A stretch of DNA of 56,799 bases from Bryobacterales bacterium (lineage in GTDB: Bacteria > Acidobacteriota > Terriglobia > Bryobacterales > Bryobacteraceae): the NCBI GenBank assembly GCA_003166865.1, contig PMUP01000012.1, positions 1-56,799 on the forward strand, in the 5' to 3' direction. The translations under genes and the position numbers were made by a program. Position 1 is the stretch's first letter. Each line of letters begins with the position of its first letter. Below are positions 12,935-56,799 of the stretch, piece by piece. Below the pieces are notes generated by a model. It did no database searches. It worked only from the letters and a program-made list of their open reading frames with translations, and was not told where the DNA came from.

Positions 12935-15418
12935 ATGCCGCTCTCTGTAGGCGACAGACTCGGTCCTTACGAGATCCTTGCGCCCATTGGCGAGGGCGGA
13001 ATGGGCGAGGTCTACAAAGCCCGCGATACTCGCCTCGACCGCGTTGTGGCTATCAAGGTTGCGAAGGACCAGTTCACCGAGCGATTTGAGCGCGAGGCGC
13101 GTTTAGTGGCTGCGCTAAACCACCCGCATATCTGCCAGCTTTACGATGTCGGGATCAATTACGTGGTGTTCGAGTACATCGATGGCGCGATACTCAAAGG
13201 TCCCATGCCGACCGCGGACGCCCTGCAAATTGCGCTGCAAATCGTGGAAGCTCTGGAAGAGGCGCACAAACACGGCATCGTCCACAGGGATCTGAAGCCT
13301 AGCAACATCTTGCTCACAGCGCGCGGCGTGAAGGTCCTGGATTTCGGGTTAGCGAAACAGAACCGCGCAGGCCCGCAAGCGGACGACGAAACTCAAACTT
13401 CGGAGCTCACGCGCGCAGGCGGCGTTATGGGAACGCCGGCCTATATGGCGCCCGAGCAATGGCAAGGCAAACCCGCCGACGCGCGCTCGGACATTTACAC
13501 CGTCGGCTGCGTGCTATATGAGCTACTGACCGGGGAACGCCCCGGACGCGAGCGAGCGCCGGTGAAACCAGCAGCGCTCGAAGCCATCGTGCGCAAGTGT
13601 CTGGCGGAAGATCCGGCCAAGCGGTTCCAATCGGCCGCCGAACTCAAGACCGCGCTGGAGGAAGTGGCGAAAGGCGGAGACCGCGTGCGGTGGTACGCTA
13701 TCGCGGCGGCGGTTTTGGTCTTGCTCGCGGCCGGCGTCACGGGTTTCTTCTGGCGACGAGCGCAAGCCAAGCCCAAGCTCACCGATCAAGATGTTCTGGT
13801 GGTAGCGGACTTCGACAATAAAACCGGCGATCCCGTTTTTGATACAGCTCTGAAGCAAGCTCTGGCGTTTCAGCTCCAACAATCGCCCTTCCTCAAAGCC
13901 ATGGACGATTCGGAAGTCCGGCAGACTATGAAGCTGTCGGGCCGGTCGCCCGATGCTCGCGTCACGGGCGACATCGCGCGCGACATCTGCATCCGGGAGG
14001 GCCAGAAAGCCATGCTGGAAGGTTCCATCGCAGCGCTCGGGTCCCAGTATCTGATCGGGCTTCAAGCGGTCAATTGTCAAACTGGCGAGACCTTCACCCG
14101 CGAGCAGGTCGAGGCTTCCGGCAAAGAGCATGTTGTGGAAGCACTCGGCCGGGCCACCGATTCGATGCGCGCCAAACTGGGAGAATCGCTCGGCACTATA
14201 CAAGGCGAGAATCGTTCCTATCAACATGCGGTCACCACCAATTCGTTGGAAGCTCTTCAGGCATTTTACATGGGTGACGAGGAGTGGACCAAGACTGGGA
14301 ACCGGCAAGCGGCCATCCCCTATTACCGCCACGCTACCGAGCTCGACCCAAACTTCGCCATGGCGTTTGCAGTGCTTGGACTGCAATCCGGGGCTTTGGG
14401 CGATGCGGTACAGGCGAAAGCGGCAATCGAGAAGGCCTATGCGTTAAAGGATCGCGTCAGCGAGCGAGAGCGCCTTTTTATCGAAGAAGAACAGCAGAGG
14501 TTGCGGAGGGACGGCAAGAAACTGCGGGAGATTCAGGAATTGCTGGCCCGGCGATATCCTCGCGATCCTATTTTTCATGCCAACCTGGCGGGCCGCTACC
14601 TCGACGTGGGCGAGCCGGAGAATGCGCTGGCAGAAGCCCAGGCGGCGATCCTGAACGGCCCCAGGATTATGTCCGGCTACATGGTTGCGAGCTACGCATT
14701 GCTGGATCTAAATCGACTTGACGAGGCAAAGGCCATGGTGCGAAGAGCGATCTCGAACGGATTCGACAGCCCGTATGTTCACTGGCCTCTCCTCACCCTC
14801 GCGTATGCCGAAGGCGATGCGCAGACGCAAAAGCGGGAAATGGAGTGGCTCGTGAGTCACGGGGCGCAGCCAATTGCTTTAATTGAGCAGGGGAACAACG
14901 CGGCTGCGCTCGGGCGCTTGAAACAGGCGAAAGAACTGTTTCGCAAAGGCTCGGACCTGCCGGGCACGCCGATCTCATTTCGGCAAGAATTTCTCACGCG
15001 GGCTGCAATCGCAGACGCGCTGTTCGGAAAGTGCTCTCCCCATGGCTCCCACGGACCGCCCATCGTGATGGCGGCGTGCGACGCGGCGGCGGCGAAGAAG
15101 TTCGCCGATCAGCAGTCCGCCAACGGCGATGTGCCGATCGCGGGAGCGGAGGCTTATGTCCGCGGGTTGGCGCTGCTCGCGCAGGCACAAGCCTCGGATG
15201 CGGCCAGCGTGTTTGCGCTGATGGTCGATCGCAAGGGCGCCAATTGGGGACCCGAATACCCCGCGGCGCAGGTCGGGCTGGCCCGCGCCGAGAAGATGAT
15301 GGGCGACACCGCCCGCGCCAAGAAAGCCTACGAGCAGTTCTTCGCCTTCTGGAAGGACGCCGACCCGGATATTCCTCTGTTGCTCGAAGCCCACAAAGAG
15401 TATGCGGCCTTGAAATAA
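12935..15418 (+). CDS. Transmembrane Ser/Thr kinase with TPR sensor, tandem copy 1
   Basis: An 827-residue protein. The kinase domain (about 11-245) has the glycine loop GEGGMG (19-24), Lys41 in VAIK, HRDLKPSN with Asp119, DFG at 136-138 and APEQ at 172-175, all intact. A transmembrane helix lies at about 253-272. A segment from about 283 (DVLVVADFDNKTGDPVFD) is the conserved post-membrane domain common in acidobacterial TPR kinases, resembling TolB/CsgG-like N-terminal regions. TPR-type helical repeats then run from about 425 to the end. It lies 25 bp after the glycosyltransferase and 5 bp before a near-duplicate. ATG 12935 aligns with the start of the duplicate. Confidence 0.94.
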   Translation: MPLSVGDRLGPYEILAPIGEGGMGEVYKARDTRLDRVVAIKVAKDQFTERFEREARLVAALNHPHICQLYDVGINYVVFEYIDGAILKGPMPTADALQIALQIVEALEEAHKHGIVHRDLKPSNILLTARGVKVLDFGLAKQNRAGPQADDETQTSELTRAGGVMGTPAYMAPEQWQGKPADARSDIYTVGCVLYELLTGERPGRERAPVKPAALEAIVRKCLAEDPAKRFQSAAELKTALEEVAKGGDRVRWYAIAAAVLVLLAAGVTGFFWRRAQAKPKLTDQDVLVVADFDNKTGDPVFDTALKQALAFQLQQSPFLKAMDDSEVRQTMKLSGRSPDARVTGDIARDICIREGQKAMLEGSIAALGSQYLIGLQAVNCQTGETFTREQVEASGKEHVVEALGRATDSMRAKLGESLGTIQGENRSYQHAVTTNSLEALQAFYMGDEEWTKTGNRQAAIPYYRHATELDPNFAMAFAVLGLQSGALGDAVQAKAAIEKAYALKDRVSERERLFIEEEQQRLRRDGKKLREIQELLARRYPRDPIFHANLAGRYLDVGEPENALAEAQAAILNGPRIMSGYMVASYALLDLNRLDEAKAMVRRAISNGFDSPYVHWPLLTLAYAEGDAQTQKREMEWLVSHGAQPIALIEQGNNAAALGRLKQAKELFRKGSDLPGTPISFRQEFLTRAAIADALFGKCSPHGSHGPPIVMAACDAAAAKKFADQQSANGDVPIAGAEAYVRGLALLAQAQASDAASVFALMVDRKGANWGPEYPAAQVGLARAEKMMGDTARAKKAYEQFFAFWKDADPDIPLLLEAHKEYAALK

Positions 15419-15423
15419 GCGCT

Positions 15424-17913
15424 ATGCCTCTCTCCGTCGGGACTCGTCTGGGACCCTACGAAATCCTTGCGCCCATTGGCGAGGGCGGAATGGGCGAGGT
15501 TTACAAAGCGCGCGATACTCGCCTCGACCGCGTTGTGGCCATCAAGGTGGCGAAGGACCAGTTCACCGAGCGATTTGAGCGCGAGGCGCGTTTAGTGGCC
15601 GCGCTGAATCATCCGCATATCTGCCAGCTCTACGATGTCGGGACCAATTACGTGGTGTTCGAGTACATCGATGGCGCGATACTCAAAGGTCCCATGGCGC
15701 CCGCGGACGCCCTGCAAATTGCGCTGCAAATCGTGGAAGCTCTGGAAGAGGCGCACAAACACGGTATCGTCCACAGGGATCTGAAGCCTAGCAACATCCT
15801 GCTCACAGCGCGCGGCGTGAAGGTCCTGGATTTCGGGTTAGCGAAACAGAGCCGCGCAGGCCCCCAGGAGGACGACGAAACTCAAACTTCGGAGCTCACC
15901 CGCGCGGGCGGGGTGATGGGAACGCCGGCCTACATGGCGCCCGAGCAATGGCAAGGCAAGCCAGCCGACGCGCGCTCGGACATTTACACCTTTGGTTGCG
16001 TGTTGTATGAGCTGCTTACCGGCGATCGGCCGGGCCGCGAGCGAGCGCCTGTGAAACCAGCGGCGCTCGAAGGGATCGTGCGCAAATGCCTGGCGGACGA
16101 TCCTGCTAAGCGTTTCCAATCCGCCGCGGAGCTCAAGACCGCGCTGCTGGACGCGGCGAAGGGCGGAGACCACGTTAGGTGGTACGCAATCGCGGCGGCG
16201 GTTTTGGTCTTGCTCGCAGCCGGCGCCACAGGGTTGTTTTGGCGACGCGCGCAAGCCAAGCCAAAGCTCACGGATCAGGATGTTCTGGTGGTAGCGGACT
16301 TTGACAATAAAACTGGCGATCCGGTTTTTGATACAGCTCTGAAGCAAGCTCTGGCGTTTCAGCTCCAACAATCGCCCTTCCTCAAAGCCATGGACGATTC
16401 GGAAGTCCGGCAGACTATGAAGCTGTCGGGACGCTCGCCCGATGCCCGCGTTACTGGCGAGATTGCGCGCGACATCTGCATCCGGGAGGGCCAGAAAGCC
16501 ATGCTGGAAGGTTCCATCGCAGCGCTCGGGCCCCAGTATCTGATCGGGCTTCAGGCGGTCAATTGTCAGACCGGCGAAACTTTGGCCCGCGAGCAGGCCG
16601 AGGCTTCCGGCAAAGAGCACGTTGTGGACGCGCTCGGCCGCGCGACGAATTCGATGCGCGTCAAACTGGGAGAATCGTTCGGCACTATACAAGGCGAGAA
16701 TCGTTCCTATCAACATGCGGTCACCACCAGCTCGTTGGAAGCTCTTCAGGCGTTTTATATGGGTGACGCGGAGTGGAGCAAGACAGTTGACCGACGAGCT
16801 GCCATCCCCTTTTACCGCCACGCTACCGAGCTTGACCCAAACTTTGCGATGGCTTTCGCGGTCCTCGGGGCCAATTATTGGGCCGTAGGCGATGCGTCCC
16901 TGGCGAAGGAAGCAACCAGGAAAGCCGAGGCATTGGAGGATCGCGTCAGCGACCGCGAGCGCTTGTTTATTGAATATGAGCGCTACTACATCGTGGGGGA
17001 ACGCCAGAAGGTGCGTGAGATCGCGGAACTGCTCGCCCGAAGATATCCCAGGGACTCGATTTTTCACTCAAATCTGGCGGGCGAGTACCTCTCTGCAGGT
17101 GAACCGGAGAAAGCGCTACCGGAAGCCCACATGGCAATCCGGACGGGCCCCCAGATTCTCGCGGGCTACGGCGTTGCGGTTTTCGCGCTTCTGGATCTGA
17201 ATCGGCTCGACGAGGCGAAGGCCAAGCTTCAACAAGCGATCTCGAAAGGATTGGGTGGCCCACTTGTTCACCTGTTTCTCCTGAGAATCGGATATGCCCA
17301 AGGGGACGGGCAAGCCCAGGCGCGTGAAGCCCAATGGCTGGCAAGTCACCAGGCGGAGGCAATGGTACTAGACGAGAAGGCGAATAATGCTGCCGCGCTG
17401 GGGCATTCCAAGCAGGCCAAGGAACTGTTTCGCAAAGCCTCGGATCTGGTGCGTCAACGTCCGTCCGAGGGCAGCTTGCAAGAGTTTCTCCCGGACGCTG
17501 CCACAGCCGATGCGCTGTTCGGAAAGTGCGCTCCCCATGGCGCCCACGTACCGCCCATCGCAGTCGCGATGTGCGATCCGTCGGCCGCGAAGAAATTCAC
17601 CGAGCAGCAGTCCGCGAGTGGGTCTGTGCCCATCACAGGACCGGAAGCATACGTCCACGCGTTGACACTACTTGCAGCGGGCCAAGCTCCAGAAGCGGCC
17701 AGCGTGTTTGCGCTGATGGTCGACCGCAAGGGCGCCAATTGGGGACCCGAATACCCCGCGGCGCAGGTCGGCCTGGCGCGCGCCGCGAAGACGATGGGCG
17801 ACTCGGCCCGCGCCAAGAAAACCTACGAGCAGTTCTTCGCCTTCTGGAAGGACGCCGACCCGGATATTCCTCTGCTGCTCGAAGCCCACAAAGAGTATGC
17901 GGCCTTGAAATAG
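15424..17913 (+). CDS. Transmembrane Ser/Thr kinase with TPR sensor, tandem copy 2
   Basis: An 829-residue paralogue of the gene immediately upstream, with the same layout: kinase (Lys41, Asp119, DFG 136-138, APEQ 172-175), transmembrane helix about 253-272, post-membrane domain, TPR region. ATG 15424 was chosen over longer in-frame ORF extension to 15031 because it matches the N-terminus MPLSVG of copy 1 and the extension overlaps that gene. The kinase part and the last roughly 75 residues are almost identical to copy 1, while the TPR middle (about 470-740) has diverged strongly. The two may share substrates but sense different ligands or partners; that is inference. Confidence 0.94.
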   Translation: MPLSVGTRLGPYEILAPIGEGGMGEVYKARDTRLDRVVAIKVAKDQFTERFEREARLVAALNHPHICQLYDVGTNYVVFEYIDGAILKGPMAPADALQIALQIVEALEEAHKHGIVHRDLKPSNILLTARGVKVLDFGLAKQSRAGPQEDDETQTSELTRAGGVMGTPAYMAPEQWQGKPADARSDIYTFGCVLYELLTGDRPGRERAPVKPAALEGIVRKCLADDPAKRFQSAAELKTALLDAAKGGDHVRWYAIAAAVLVLLAAGATGLFWRRAQAKPKLTDQDVLVVADFDNKTGDPVFDTALKQALAFQLQQSPFLKAMDDSEVRQTMKLSGRSPDARVTGEIARDICIREGQKAMLEGSIAALGPQYLIGLQAVNCQTGETLAREQAEASGKEHVVDALGRATNSMRVKLGESFGTIQGENRSYQHAVTTSSLEALQAFYMGDAEWSKTVDRRAAIPFYRHATELDPNFAMAFAVLGANYWAVGDASLAKEATRKAEALEDRVSDRERLFIEYERYYIVGERQKVREIAELLARRYPRDSIFHSNLAGEYLSAGEPEKALPEAHMAIRTGPQILAGYGVAVFALLDLNRLDEAKAKLQQAISKGLGGPLVHLFLLRIGYAQGDGQAQAREAQWLASHQAEAMVLDEKANNAAALGHSKQAKELFRKASDLVRQRPSEGSLQEFLPDAATADALFGKCAPHGAHVPPIAVAMCDPSAAKKFTEQQSASGSVPITGPEAYVHALTLLAAGQAPEAASVFALMVDRKGANWGPEYPAAQVGLARAAKTMGDSARAKKTYEQFFAFWKDADPDIPLLLEAHKEYAALK

Positions 17914-54778: not shown

Positions 54779-56799
54779 CTATTTCAACTTCGCGTACTCG
54801 GCGTTGGCTTGTTGCAGGATCGGGATGTCCGGGTCGGCGTTTTTCCATAGCGCGAAGAAATCCTGATACGCAGTTTTGGCTTTCGCGTTATCGCCGGCCA
54901 GGGCGTACGCGCGCCCCAGGCCCAGATGCGCCAGCGCGCCCATCACATTGTTCCCGACTACGCCCGGATGGTCGAGAATCTTCTGGAACTCGCCCGCCGC
55001 CGCTGCGCCCTGTTTGGCGGCCAGATACGCGTCGCCCCGCAAATAGACCGGGCAAAGAGGAAGTTTAGTTTGCGGCCCCAATTCGTAAGGCGCGGCCGCC
55101 GCGAGCGCCTCCACCGCTTTGCCGGCGTCGCCACTCTCAAGCGCGGCAGCAGCACGAATCATAGGCAAGTATTGGGACTGCACAATCGTATCTTCTGGGA
55201 AGCGCTTGCCAAGATCGGCAGCCAGCCGCTCGGCTTGCGCGGAATCGCCTGCCAGTCCGAGTGCAATGGCGGAATATGCCTCGACGTCTTTGCTATTGGC
55301 CAGCGCGAGCGCGGCCTGCGCCTCTTGCTTTGCCAACGCCATATTACCCACCAACGCTTCGCGGACCGCGGCTTCTTCCTTGTATCCTGCCGCCTGCTCT
55401 TTGTCGTCTGCTCGTTGCGCGGAATCGGCGGCGCGCTGCGTCAGTTTCCGGGCCTTGGCAAGCTCCCCGCCGTAGGCGGCTGTGTCCGAGTCAAAGAAAA
55501 AAATCTGATCCTCGTATCCCGCTTTCCCCATCAGCGCAGCGGCATCCCGCTCCATCCCCGCGGCATCGTGCTGCAGGAAATCCACCCCGTAAAGATTGAG
55601 ATGGATGGCCGGCCCATCGACATTGTGGGCCTGCGCCTCCCGCGCCGTGGCTTTGGCTTCATCCAGACGGTTGAGGGACAGGTACACGGCGGCCAGATTC
55701 GCGTAGGCAGCGGCACTCCCGGGCTCGAGTCTGAGAGCCTCCCGTGCCGCTGGGAGAGCTTTGTCCAGTTGTCCCAAGATCATGTAAATGACGCCTAGAT
55801 TATTCGTCGGGGTGGCGTCGCGCGGATAGGTCTGCGCCCACAACTCGTAGGCTGCGCGAGCCGCCTCCACGTTTCCAGTGGCGAATTGCTCGTAATGAGA
55901 GGAAATGTAGAGCTTTTCCAATTCGCTGGTGCGATCCCGCAATTCATACGACTTACGCGTACTCTCGGCTCCACGCTCGGGCTGGCCTAGGTTGGAATAA
56001 CTTGTCCCCAGCCGCGCATAGGCCATGGCGAAATTCGAGTCCAAACTCACGGCCCTCTGGTAGAACGGGATCGCGGCAGGGAAATCGCCCTTCACGAGCA
56101 TCGCTTGATAGCCCAGGCTATAAGCCTGCAGCGCCTCCAGAGACGGCGTCGTCACGTTCTCCGCTGGCACATCATACTTCCTCACCGAGGCCAGCGATTC
56201 TCCCAGCTTCTCGCGCAGCTTAGTGGCTGCGTCCCCAAGAGCCTTGAGTACCTGCTCTTTTCCATTGGCCGTCACCTGTTCTTGAGCGAGAACATCGCCA
56301 TTGTGGCAGTTCAACGCGTTCAAACCCAGCACATACTGGTTGCCCAAACTTGCGATGGAGCCCTCAATGGTGGCAGCGCTGGCCGTGCGCTGGCAAACTT
56401 CGCGCCCGAGTTCTTGGGTGAGCCGCGCATCTTTCGGCTGGCTCATCAGCGCCAGGGTCTGCGCGATGCGCCGATCGGAAACCAGGCTCAAGAACGGCGA
56501 TTGCTCCAATTGCGCCGAGAGTCCCTGCCGCAGCGTGCCGTCGAAGACAGAATCGCCGGTAGTGTTGGTGAAGTCGGCCAGAACGATGGTGTCTTTTTCG
56601 GTGAGCTTGGGTGCGCGCCGATGCAGGAAGAAATAGGTCGCACCGGCTGCCGCGATTAGGATCACGGCGGCGGTGAGCCAAGGCCAGCGCTTGGCCGGAG
56701 CCTTCACCGCCGGCAATTTCATCGACTCGCTGTCCCGCTTCAGCCGCTGCAAGTCCGACCGCATCTCCGACGCGCTCTGGTAGCGCAGCTCGCGATCTT
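54779..56799 (-). CDS. Transmembrane Ser/Thr kinase with TPR sensor (N-terminal kinase part outside window)
   Basis: The frame is open to the right edge, so the gene is partial at its 5' end. The first visible residues DRELRYQSASEMRSDLQRLKRD are the typical end of a Ser/Thr kinase domain. A transmembrane helix follows (WPWLTAAVILIAAAGATYFF), then the post-membrane domain ADFTNTTGDSVFDGTLRQGL and a long TPR array (AIPFYQRAVSLDSNFAMAYARLG, YPRDATPTNNLGVIYMILGQLDKAL, SAAAYANLAAVYLSLNRLDEAK). It ends with ALWKNADPDIPILQQANAEYAKLK, homologous to the tails of the tandem kinases at 12.9-17.9 kb but more distant than those are from each other. Confidence 0.92.
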   Translation of the reverse strand, partial: DRELRYQSASEMRSDLQRLKRDSESMKLPAVKAPAKRWPWLTAAVILIAAAGATYFFLHRRAPKLTEKDTIVLADFTNTTGDSVFDGTLRQGLSAQLEQSPFLSLVSDRRIAQTLALMSQPKDARLTQELGREVCQRTASAATIEGSIASLGNQYVLGLNALNCHNGDVLAQEQVTANGKEQVLKALGDAATKLREKLGESLASVRKYDVPAENVTTPSLEALQAYSLGYQAMLVKGDFPAAIPFYQRAVSLDSNFAMAYARLGTSYSNLGQPERGAESTRKSYELRDRTSELEKLYISSHYEQFATGNVEAARAAYELWAQTYPRDATPTNNLGVIYMILGQLDKALPAAREALRLEPGSAAAYANLAAVYLSLNRLDEAKATAREAQAHNVDGPAIHLNLYGVDFLQHDAAGMERDAAALMGKAGYEDQIFFFDSDTAAYGGELAKARKLTQRAADSAQRADDKEQAAGYKEEAAVREALVGNMALAKQEAQAALALANSKDVEAYSAIALGLAGDSAQAERLAADLGKRFPEDTIVQSQYLPMIRAAAALESGDAGKAVEALAAAAPYELGPQTKLPLCPVYLRGDAYLAAKQGAAAAGEFQKILDHPGVVGNNVMGALAHLGLGRAYALAGDNAKAKTAYQDFFALWKNADPDIPILQQANAEYAKLK

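What the first reader, a model, noticed from the sequence alone, without database searches (positions are those of the whole stretch)
12935..17913. Tandem TPR kinases with near-identical ends and a diverged sensor middle
The two genes are 5 bp apart. Kinase, membrane and post-membrane parts are almost identical, including a perfect 107-nt block (13835-13941 = 16324-16430), and the last about 220 nt are again nearly identical, but the TPR region between has drifted strongly. That mosaic fits duplication followed by sensor diversification, with gene conversion keeping the kinase and tail uniform. It would give two receptors with one output.
Basis: partly seen in the sequence, partly recalled or inferred. 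Interest (0 to 1): 0.55.

Follow-up and report, generated by a model that had tools for sequence, protein, structure and literature searches.

The report
Tandem sensor kinases with copied ends
Two neighbouring sensor-kinase genes of a soil-type bacterium look like an old duplicate pair in which stretches at both ends have been recopied from one gene to the other while the middle of the sensor drifted apart, a clear example of an already known kind of gene-family evolution.

Summary
Genes A (12935-15418) and B (15424-17913) are 5 bp apart, 84% identical in DNA, and share the exact 107-nt block. Silent sites, which separate copying from protein constraint, are a true mosaic: mismatches at same-residue codons are 4/64 in the tail, 25/166 in the post-membrane block, 4/82 in codons 71-158, but 75/175 in the TPR middle. 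Codons 159-285 (37/112) are nearly as silent-diverged as the middle, so their likeness reflects constraint. Divergence varies within the conserved parts, favouring several conversion events over one young duplication with a swapped middle. No orthologue of A or B was found. In 11 neighbour pairs of the family, tails are homogenised relative to 14,709 distant pairs; four of the 11 show no tail effect. Of five neighbour pairs tested by trees, one shows sister kinases and tails with a sister middle rejected, a second does so for the kinase only, three show no significant conflict. The middle shows no positive selection (dN/dS 0.27; control median 0.29). Gene conversion is supported; 'sensor diversification' and 'one output' are not shown. 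Partial concerted evolution is a known kind.

The parts
12935..15418 (+). Gene A: receptor-type Ser/Thr kinase, 827 aa (kinase, one hydrophobic segment, TolB-like domain, TPR array)
   Evidence: ORF; Pfam; models
15424..17913 (+). Gene B: tandem paralogue, 829 aa, same architecture (the mechanical ORF starts at 15031; the start at 15424 matches A)
12935..13669 (+). Kinase domain of A (aa 1-245); K41, HRD D119, DFG D136, APE E174 by reading
   Evidence: PF00069 at aa 12-205, E 1.9e-42; best PDB sequence matches PknB
13691..13753 (+). Single hydrophobic segment of A (aa 253-273), presumed membrane helix
   Evidence: read from the sequence; no predictor run
13778..14176 (+). TolB/LpoB/PelC-like alpha-beta domain of A (aa 282-414)
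   Evidence: model of aa 282-421 with pLDDT 93.7; LpoB Foldseek E 3e-7; PelC Z 13.5, TolB Z 13.4
14240..15415 (+). TPR superhelix of A (aa 436-827)
   Evidence: model, matches to TPR proteins, Pfam TPR
12974..13408 (+). Tract of low silent divergence in A's kinase (codons 14-158; 13/138 silent mismatches with B)
   Evidence: seven-segment solution (the best BIC has five segments and does not split here); codons 71-158 are 4/82
13409..13789 (+). Codons 159-285 of A: protein 92% identical but silent-diverged (37/112), constraint rather than recent copying
13790..14353 (+). Codons 286-473 of A: low silent divergence (25/166); holds the 107-nt perfect block 13835-13941
14354..15199 (+). Diverged TPR middle of A, codons 474-755 (protein 63% identical to B, silent 75/175)
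15200..15415 (+). Homogenised tail of A, codons 756-827 (silent 4/64): last TPRs and cap
16324..16430 (+). B copy of the 107-nt perfect block
16843..17694 (+). Diverged TPR middle of B (codons 474-757)
17695..17910 (+). Homogenised tail of B (codons 758-829); similarity runs about 10 nt past the stop codon
11248..12909 (+). Upstream gene, 553 aa, no Pfam or NCBIfam match; ends 25 bp before A, so perhaps one operon with A and B

Best explanation
A and B are an old tandem duplicate of a membrane receptor kinase (Hanks-type kinase inside, one membrane helix, TolB-like domain plus TPR superhelix outside). After the duplication, homologous recombination between the neighbours copied short stretches from one gene to the other several times and at different dates: part of the kinase, the post-membrane block and, most recently or most often, the last TPRs. 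The TPR middle was not recopied and carries the age of the duplication (dS about 1.0), drifting under ordinary purifying selection. Shown: the silent-site mosaic, its heterogeneity, and a tail effect in other neighbouring pairs of the family. Inferred: that the copying is gene conversion, that the ectodomain is periplasmic, and that both proteins may share kinase targets. Why the middle escapes is open; the simplest reading is that constrained parts stay similar enough in DNA to keep recombining, while the looser TPR middle fell below the homology needed.
For: Silent mosaic: sliding-mean variance reached in 0 of 20,000 permutations. Not codon bias: about 0.59-0.62 mismatch is expected for unrelated codons in every block, observed 0.03-0.41. 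Four-fold residues alone give the same picture for codons 14-158, 159-285, 286-473, 474-755 and the tail: 7/49, 21/55, 14/61, 26/63, 2/26. The conserved parts differ among themselves: codons 71-158 versus 159-285 Fisher 8e-7; permutations over codons 14-473 give p 0.0005, 0.017 and 0.0015 for three statistics. Generality: ratio of tail to middle silent mismatch has median 0.53 in 11 neighbour pairs, 0.88 in 177 distant same-genome pairs, 0.90 in 14,532 cross-genome pairs; Mann-Whitney 4.3e-4 and 2.5e-4; without A-B (10 pairs) 1.5e-3 and 1.0e-3. After regression on tail protein identity, middle identity and middle silent mismatch the effect remains (p 0.002); 6 of 11 neighbour pairs lie in the lowest 5% of distant pairs, A-B in the lowest 0.0001. 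Trees: L221 pair, kinase sisters 100/99, tail sisters 99/98, sister middle rejected (AU 2e-4); L230 pair, kinase sisters 100/100, sister middle rejected (4e-62). A and B middles are each other's closest among the 181 members compared (0.63; next best 0.40).
Against: No orthologue of A or B, so conversion on this pair rests on the mosaic alone. Four of 11 neighbour pairs (L229, L236, L010/L030, L230) show no tail effect. Three of five tree tests show no significant conflict: the middles are sisters too for L217 (99/97) and L216/L158 (81/73), and for L107 a sister middle is not rejected (AU 0.27); L217 kinases are not recovered as sisters (AU 0.39, neither shown nor rejected). In L230 the tails are not sisters in the best tree (AU 0.06), so only L221 matches the kinase-plus-tail pattern significantly, and there one tail lies as near to a second paralogue of the same genome (L148, path 0.27) as to its neighbour. 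Pairs share genes and genomes, so the Mann-Whitney p values are optimistic. The best BIC (five segments) does not insist on the finer kinase tracts.
Confidence: 0.72

Rival explanations
1. Recent tandem duplication, after which the TPR middle of one copy was replaced in one event by a diverged homologue (from another strain or a lost paralogue); the ends are alike only because the duplication is young.
For: Gives one low and one high divergence class; kinase and ectodomain histories are decoupled elsewhere in the family (L007 versus L152: kinase blocks 0.56-0.76, ectodomain blocks 0.83-0.85).
Against: Silent divergence within the ends is far from uniform (4/82 versus 37/112, Fisher 8e-7) and codons 2-13 are diverged (9/11). 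No possible donor with a middle closer than 0.40 to A or B was found among the 181 family members compared.
Confidence: 0.17
2. No conversion: uniform age, with strong selection (protein, codon or RNA level) keeping the ends alike.
For: Explains codons 159-285, where protein is 92% identical but silent sites diverge (37/112). Across the family the tail helices vary less than most of the middle.
Against: Distant pairs of the family show no such silent conservation in the tail: median tail-to-middle ratio 0.88-0.90, pooled tail mismatch 0.56 in pairs under 50% identity. In 28 distant pairs with tail identity of 0.9 or more the median tail mismatch is 0.28 against 0.06 for A-B, though the lowest of them, a close cross-genome pair, reaches 0.045.
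Confidence: 0.07
3. Assembly artefact: an assembler merged similar parts of two genes or collapsed a longer array.
For: The genome is a 107-contig draft of unknown read type; this contig ends inside another family member.
Against: No identical run exceeds 107 nt and the conserved blocks carry scattered differences, so both copies were told apart; pairs in other assemblies show related patterns. A copy number above two cannot be tested here.
Confidence: 0.04

Closest known systems
Campylobacter jejuni chemoreceptors Tlp2, Tlp3, Tlp4 (PMC9769880, passages seen)
   Same: Paralogous receptors with identical signalling domains and sensory regions of about 30% identity.
   Different: Chemoreceptors, not kinases; the passages speak of domain duplication and divergence, and I saw no silent-site test in them; here the sensory middles still share 63%.
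Pseudomonas aeruginosa PctA, PctB, PctC (PMC6974571, passages seen)
   Same: Over 96% identity in the signalling domain and under 56% in the sensory domain.
   Different: The passages explain it by strict selection on the signalling domain; here silent sites point to copying for part of the conserved regions.
Long-lasting concerted evolution of prokaryotic genes, tuf and others (PMC6053082, passages seen)
   Same: Paralogues kept alike at silent and replacement sites, attributed to recurrent gene conversion.
   Different: That study says it deals with concerted evolution across the full gene length; here only segments are homogenised.
Ser/Thr kinase paralogues of Candidatus Solibacter usitatus (PMC3174227, passages seen)
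   Same: Acidobacterial kinase paralogues, no sign of positive selection.
   Different: Paralogues there generally under 50% identical; the term 'gene conversion' does not occur in the text held.

Membership tests
Hanks-type bacterial Ser/Thr kinase | Protein kinase family match with catalytic residues | tested here: met
   PF00069 E 1.9e-42 and 3e-42; K41, D119, D136, E174 of A by reading; PknB the best PDB sequence match
Hanks-type bacterial Ser/Thr kinase | Kinase activity | not testable with these tools
   needs a biochemical assay
PASTA kinase (NF033483) | Whole-protein score above the curated cut-off; PASTA repeats | tested here: not met
   255.9 and 249.5 bits against cut-off 450, best stretch in the kinase; no PASTA family in the Pfam lists
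TIGR04510 putative peptide modification system cyclase | Score above the curated cut-off | tested here: not met
   186.1 and 179.4 bits against 400; the match lies at A aa 254-614 and B aa 254-674, outside the kinase
TolB-like N-terminal domain fold | Alpha-beta fold like TolB/LpoB/PelC | tested here: met
   Foldseek E 3e-7 (LpoB) and 9e-7 (TolB); PelC Z 13.5, 122 residues, rmsd 2.9, and TolB Z 13.4, 123 residues, rmsd 3.0. Fold resemblance of a predicted model only
TPR superhelix | Repeated helix pairs | tested here: met
   Pfam TPR matches; model and structural matches
Partial concerted evolution by gene conversion | Silent sites homogenised in segments, beyond chance | tested here: met
Partial concerted evolution by gene conversion | Paralogues closer to each other than to orthologues in converted segments only | tested here: inconclusive
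   no orthologues of A or B; among other neighbour pairs met in L221 for kinase and tail, in L230 for the kinase only, not significant in L107, L217, L216/L158

The most novel reading that the evidence does not exclude
In this acidobacterial receptor family neighbouring genes trade modules: kinase and last TPRs are exchanged as conversion tracts while the central TPR array is spared, even between receptors with different outputs (kinase versus winged-helix DNA-binding domain, L216/L158). The array would be a stable 'address' inside otherwise exchangeable receptors, with the C-terminal TPRs perhaps binding a partner common to neighbours.
Probability: 0.2. Interest if true: 0.55.

Novelty: new member of a known kind. 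Interest (0 to 1): 0.38.

Why it matters
Receptor paralogues with near-identical signalling parts and diverged sensors have been explained by selection on the signalling part (for example PctA/B/C). Silent sites here show that part of the likeness comes from copying between neighbours, so trees of the kinase or tail alone could misdate the duplications. The family is common enough to test this: 136 of 399 class genomes held an ectodomain match at E 1e-60 or better and 18 of 237 genomes of the window's taxonomic family at 1e-80 or better, the window's own genome counted in both. It is a convenient place to ask whether conversion respects functional borders.

Tried and rejected
Orthologues of A or B: sought with A's ectodomain in 61 genomes (relatives), 399 of the class (drawn from a larger group), 237 of the family, own genome counted each time, and in one scan of genome contigs (68 loci). 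Best full-length relative 44% over the ectodomain (G136); the four other genomes of the genus had no match at 1e-80. So no orthologue test on this pair. Positive selection in the middle: not found. Focus of A-B differences on one helix class: none; they track family variability weakly (p 0.02). A third close copy in the genome: none. Direction of conversion: not attempted; silent sites to the nearest outgroup look saturated. A hint that A's first 13 codons are nearer to other kinases (C101 4/10, C14 3/10) than to B (9/11) is too small to use.

Rows dropped before counts: one search used 702 pairs (4 tandem) of at least 55% identity with enough codons. One search kept 14,720 of the 16,290 pairs; the rest overlap too little, among them 2 of 13 neighbour pairs (both with the truncated gene L217 2-2257). 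The L218 neighbour seen was too short for the set; the two abutting ORFs of L130, probably one gene in two frames, were not counted as a pair. L035/L211 has only 17 tail codons. Neighbour pairs were fetched because of their position, but L107, L217, L221 and L216/L158 had already been seen before the formal test; L216/L158 was filed as non-tandem and recognised as neighbours (about 4 kb apart, divergent) only after its low ratio was seen.

Literature: one search listed three papers, none on this subject by title and start of abstract; one search listed none; one plant review, two unrelated papers. Two more were looked at by passages and not used (PMC4603909; PMC2914791). I claim no absence from print beyond these searches. 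No membrane-helix predictor was run.

Full report
What is there. Genes A (12935-15418, 827 aa) and B (15424-17913, 829 aa) lie head to tail with 5 bp between them. Both have a Hanks-type kinase domain. For A the rest was modelled: a hydrophobic segment at aa 253-273 (read from the sequence), a TolB/LpoB/PelC-like alpha-beta domain and a TPR superhelix to the C terminus; B aligns along its whole length. A 553-aa gene without family match ends 25 bp upstream; a beta-lactamase-family gene (PF00144) converges from downstream. Similarity between the copies continues about 10 nt past the stop codons.

Silent-site mosaic. Over 827 aligned codons the genes are 84.1% identical in DNA and 83.0% in protein. 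To separate copying from constraint I counted codons that encode the same degenerate residue and asked whether they differ. Of 666 such codons 163 differ, and they are clustered (0 of 20,000 permutations reach the observed variance). By block: codons 2-13, 9/11; 14-70, 9/56; 71-158, 4/82; 159-285, 37/112; 286-473, 25/166; 474-755, 75/175; the rest, 4/64. About 0.6 is expected for unrelated codons. So the tail, part of the kinase and the post-membrane block are young or recopied, the TPR middle is old, and the kinase C-lobe with the membrane segment is old but protein-constrained.

Conversion or a swapped middle? One recent duplication with an imported middle predicts one level of silent divergence across both ends. 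Within codons 14-473 the level is heterogeneous (permutation p 0.0005, 0.017 and 0.0015 for three statistics; 71-158 versus 159-285 Fisher 8e-7). The two middles are each other's closest relatives (0.63; next best 0.40). Several conversion events of different dates fit best, although the best BIC (five segments) does not demand the finer tracts.

The wider family. No orthologue of A or B turned up in 61 genomes of relatives, 399 of the class, 237 of the family or 68 loci from genome contigs. I therefore took 181 family members and compared all 16,290 pairs, of which 14,720 had enough codons. The ratio of tail to middle silent mismatch has median 0.53 in 11 neighbour pairs within 15 kb, 0.88 in 177 distant pairs of the same genome and 0.90 in 14,532 pairs across genomes (Mann-Whitney 4.3e-4 and 2.5e-4; without A-B 1.5e-3 and 1.0e-3). 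A-B has the lowest ratio of all. Six of the 11 lie well inside the lowest 5% of distant pairs and L215 at its edge (0.0504); L229, L236, L010/L030 and L230 do not. After regression on tail identity, middle identity and middle silent mismatch the effect remains (p 0.002; 6 of 11 in the lowest 5%, L215 at 0.08). Pairs are not independent, so these p values are optimistic.

Trees. Five neighbour pairs were tested. L221: kinase sisters 100/99, tail sisters 99/98, sister middle rejected (AU 2e-4); one of the two tails is equally near to a further paralogue of its genome. L230: kinase sisters 100/100, sister middle rejected (4e-62), tails not sisters (AU 0.06). L217: middle and tail sisters, the tails about five times closer (path 0.09 versus 0.48); kinases not recovered as sisters (AU 0.39). 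L216/L158: tail sisters 100/99 (0.03), middle sisters weakly (81/73, 0.51) (all). L107: kinase 100/100, tail 86/98, middle apart in the best tree but sisterhood not rejected (AU 0.27). So one pair matches the kinase-plus-tail pattern significantly, one matches it for the kinase, and three show no significant conflict.

Function. In L216/L158 one neighbour carries a DNA-binding Trans_reg_C domain (L158) while the other aligns with kinase members of the family (L216), yet their tails are 97% identical. The ectodomain also matches the later part of TIGR04510, a cyclase family, below its cut-off, and a close relative of A's kinase sits on an unrelated C-terminal part in contig C101 (sulfatase-modifying-factor domain). 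The ectodomain is thus a module used with several outputs, and uniform output cannot be the general reason for tail homogenisation. The middle evolves under purifying selection (A-B dN/dS 0.27; cross-genome control pairs median 0.29, 5-95% 0.11-0.45), and differences are not focused on one helix class (44/112 and 34/95). That A and B sense different things while signalling alike is plausible but untested.

Comparison. Receptor paralogues with like signalling and unlike sensory parts are known: C. jejuni Tlp2/3/4 (PMC9769880, passages) and P. aeruginosa PctA/B/C (PMC6974571, passages). Conversion-driven concerted evolution over whole prokaryotic genes is known too (PMC6053082, passages). The present case is a segmental version in an acidobacterial kinase family: a new member of a known kind, with a testable recurring pattern.

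Origin of the window. The taxon is not named. This is inference.

Noticed in passing
window 54779-56797 (-): A further family member with the same ectodomain runs to the contig end; the 672 aa held show TPRs but no kinase match in Pfam, so its output domain is unknown.
   Followed up: partly
L216 9727-12642 and L158 964-3387 (G370:C88): Two divergent neighbours about 4 kb apart share a 97% identical tail although L158 has an N-terminal Trans_reg_C DNA-binding domain where L216 aligns with kinases.
   Followed up: partly
L199 4135-6960 (G000:C101): The kinase domain nearest to A's elsewhere in the genome (72% over aa 1-244) is followed by a sulfatase-modifying-factor domain and a weak hydrolase match instead of TPRs.
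   Followed up: no
window 13778-14197 and homologues: Two cysteines of the TolB-like domain (C100 invariant, C71 in 90% or more of 45 sequences), perhaps a disulfide; the periplasmic domain of CadC is among the fold matches (Z 8.9).
   Followed up: no
G000:C12 203241-204728: Pieces of a family member with in-frame stops, apparently a pseudogene.
   Followed up: no
L086 and L093: Cross-genome pair with 1-7% silent mismatch in the kinase blocks but about 20% in the ectodomain, a possible kinase transfer.
   Followed up: no
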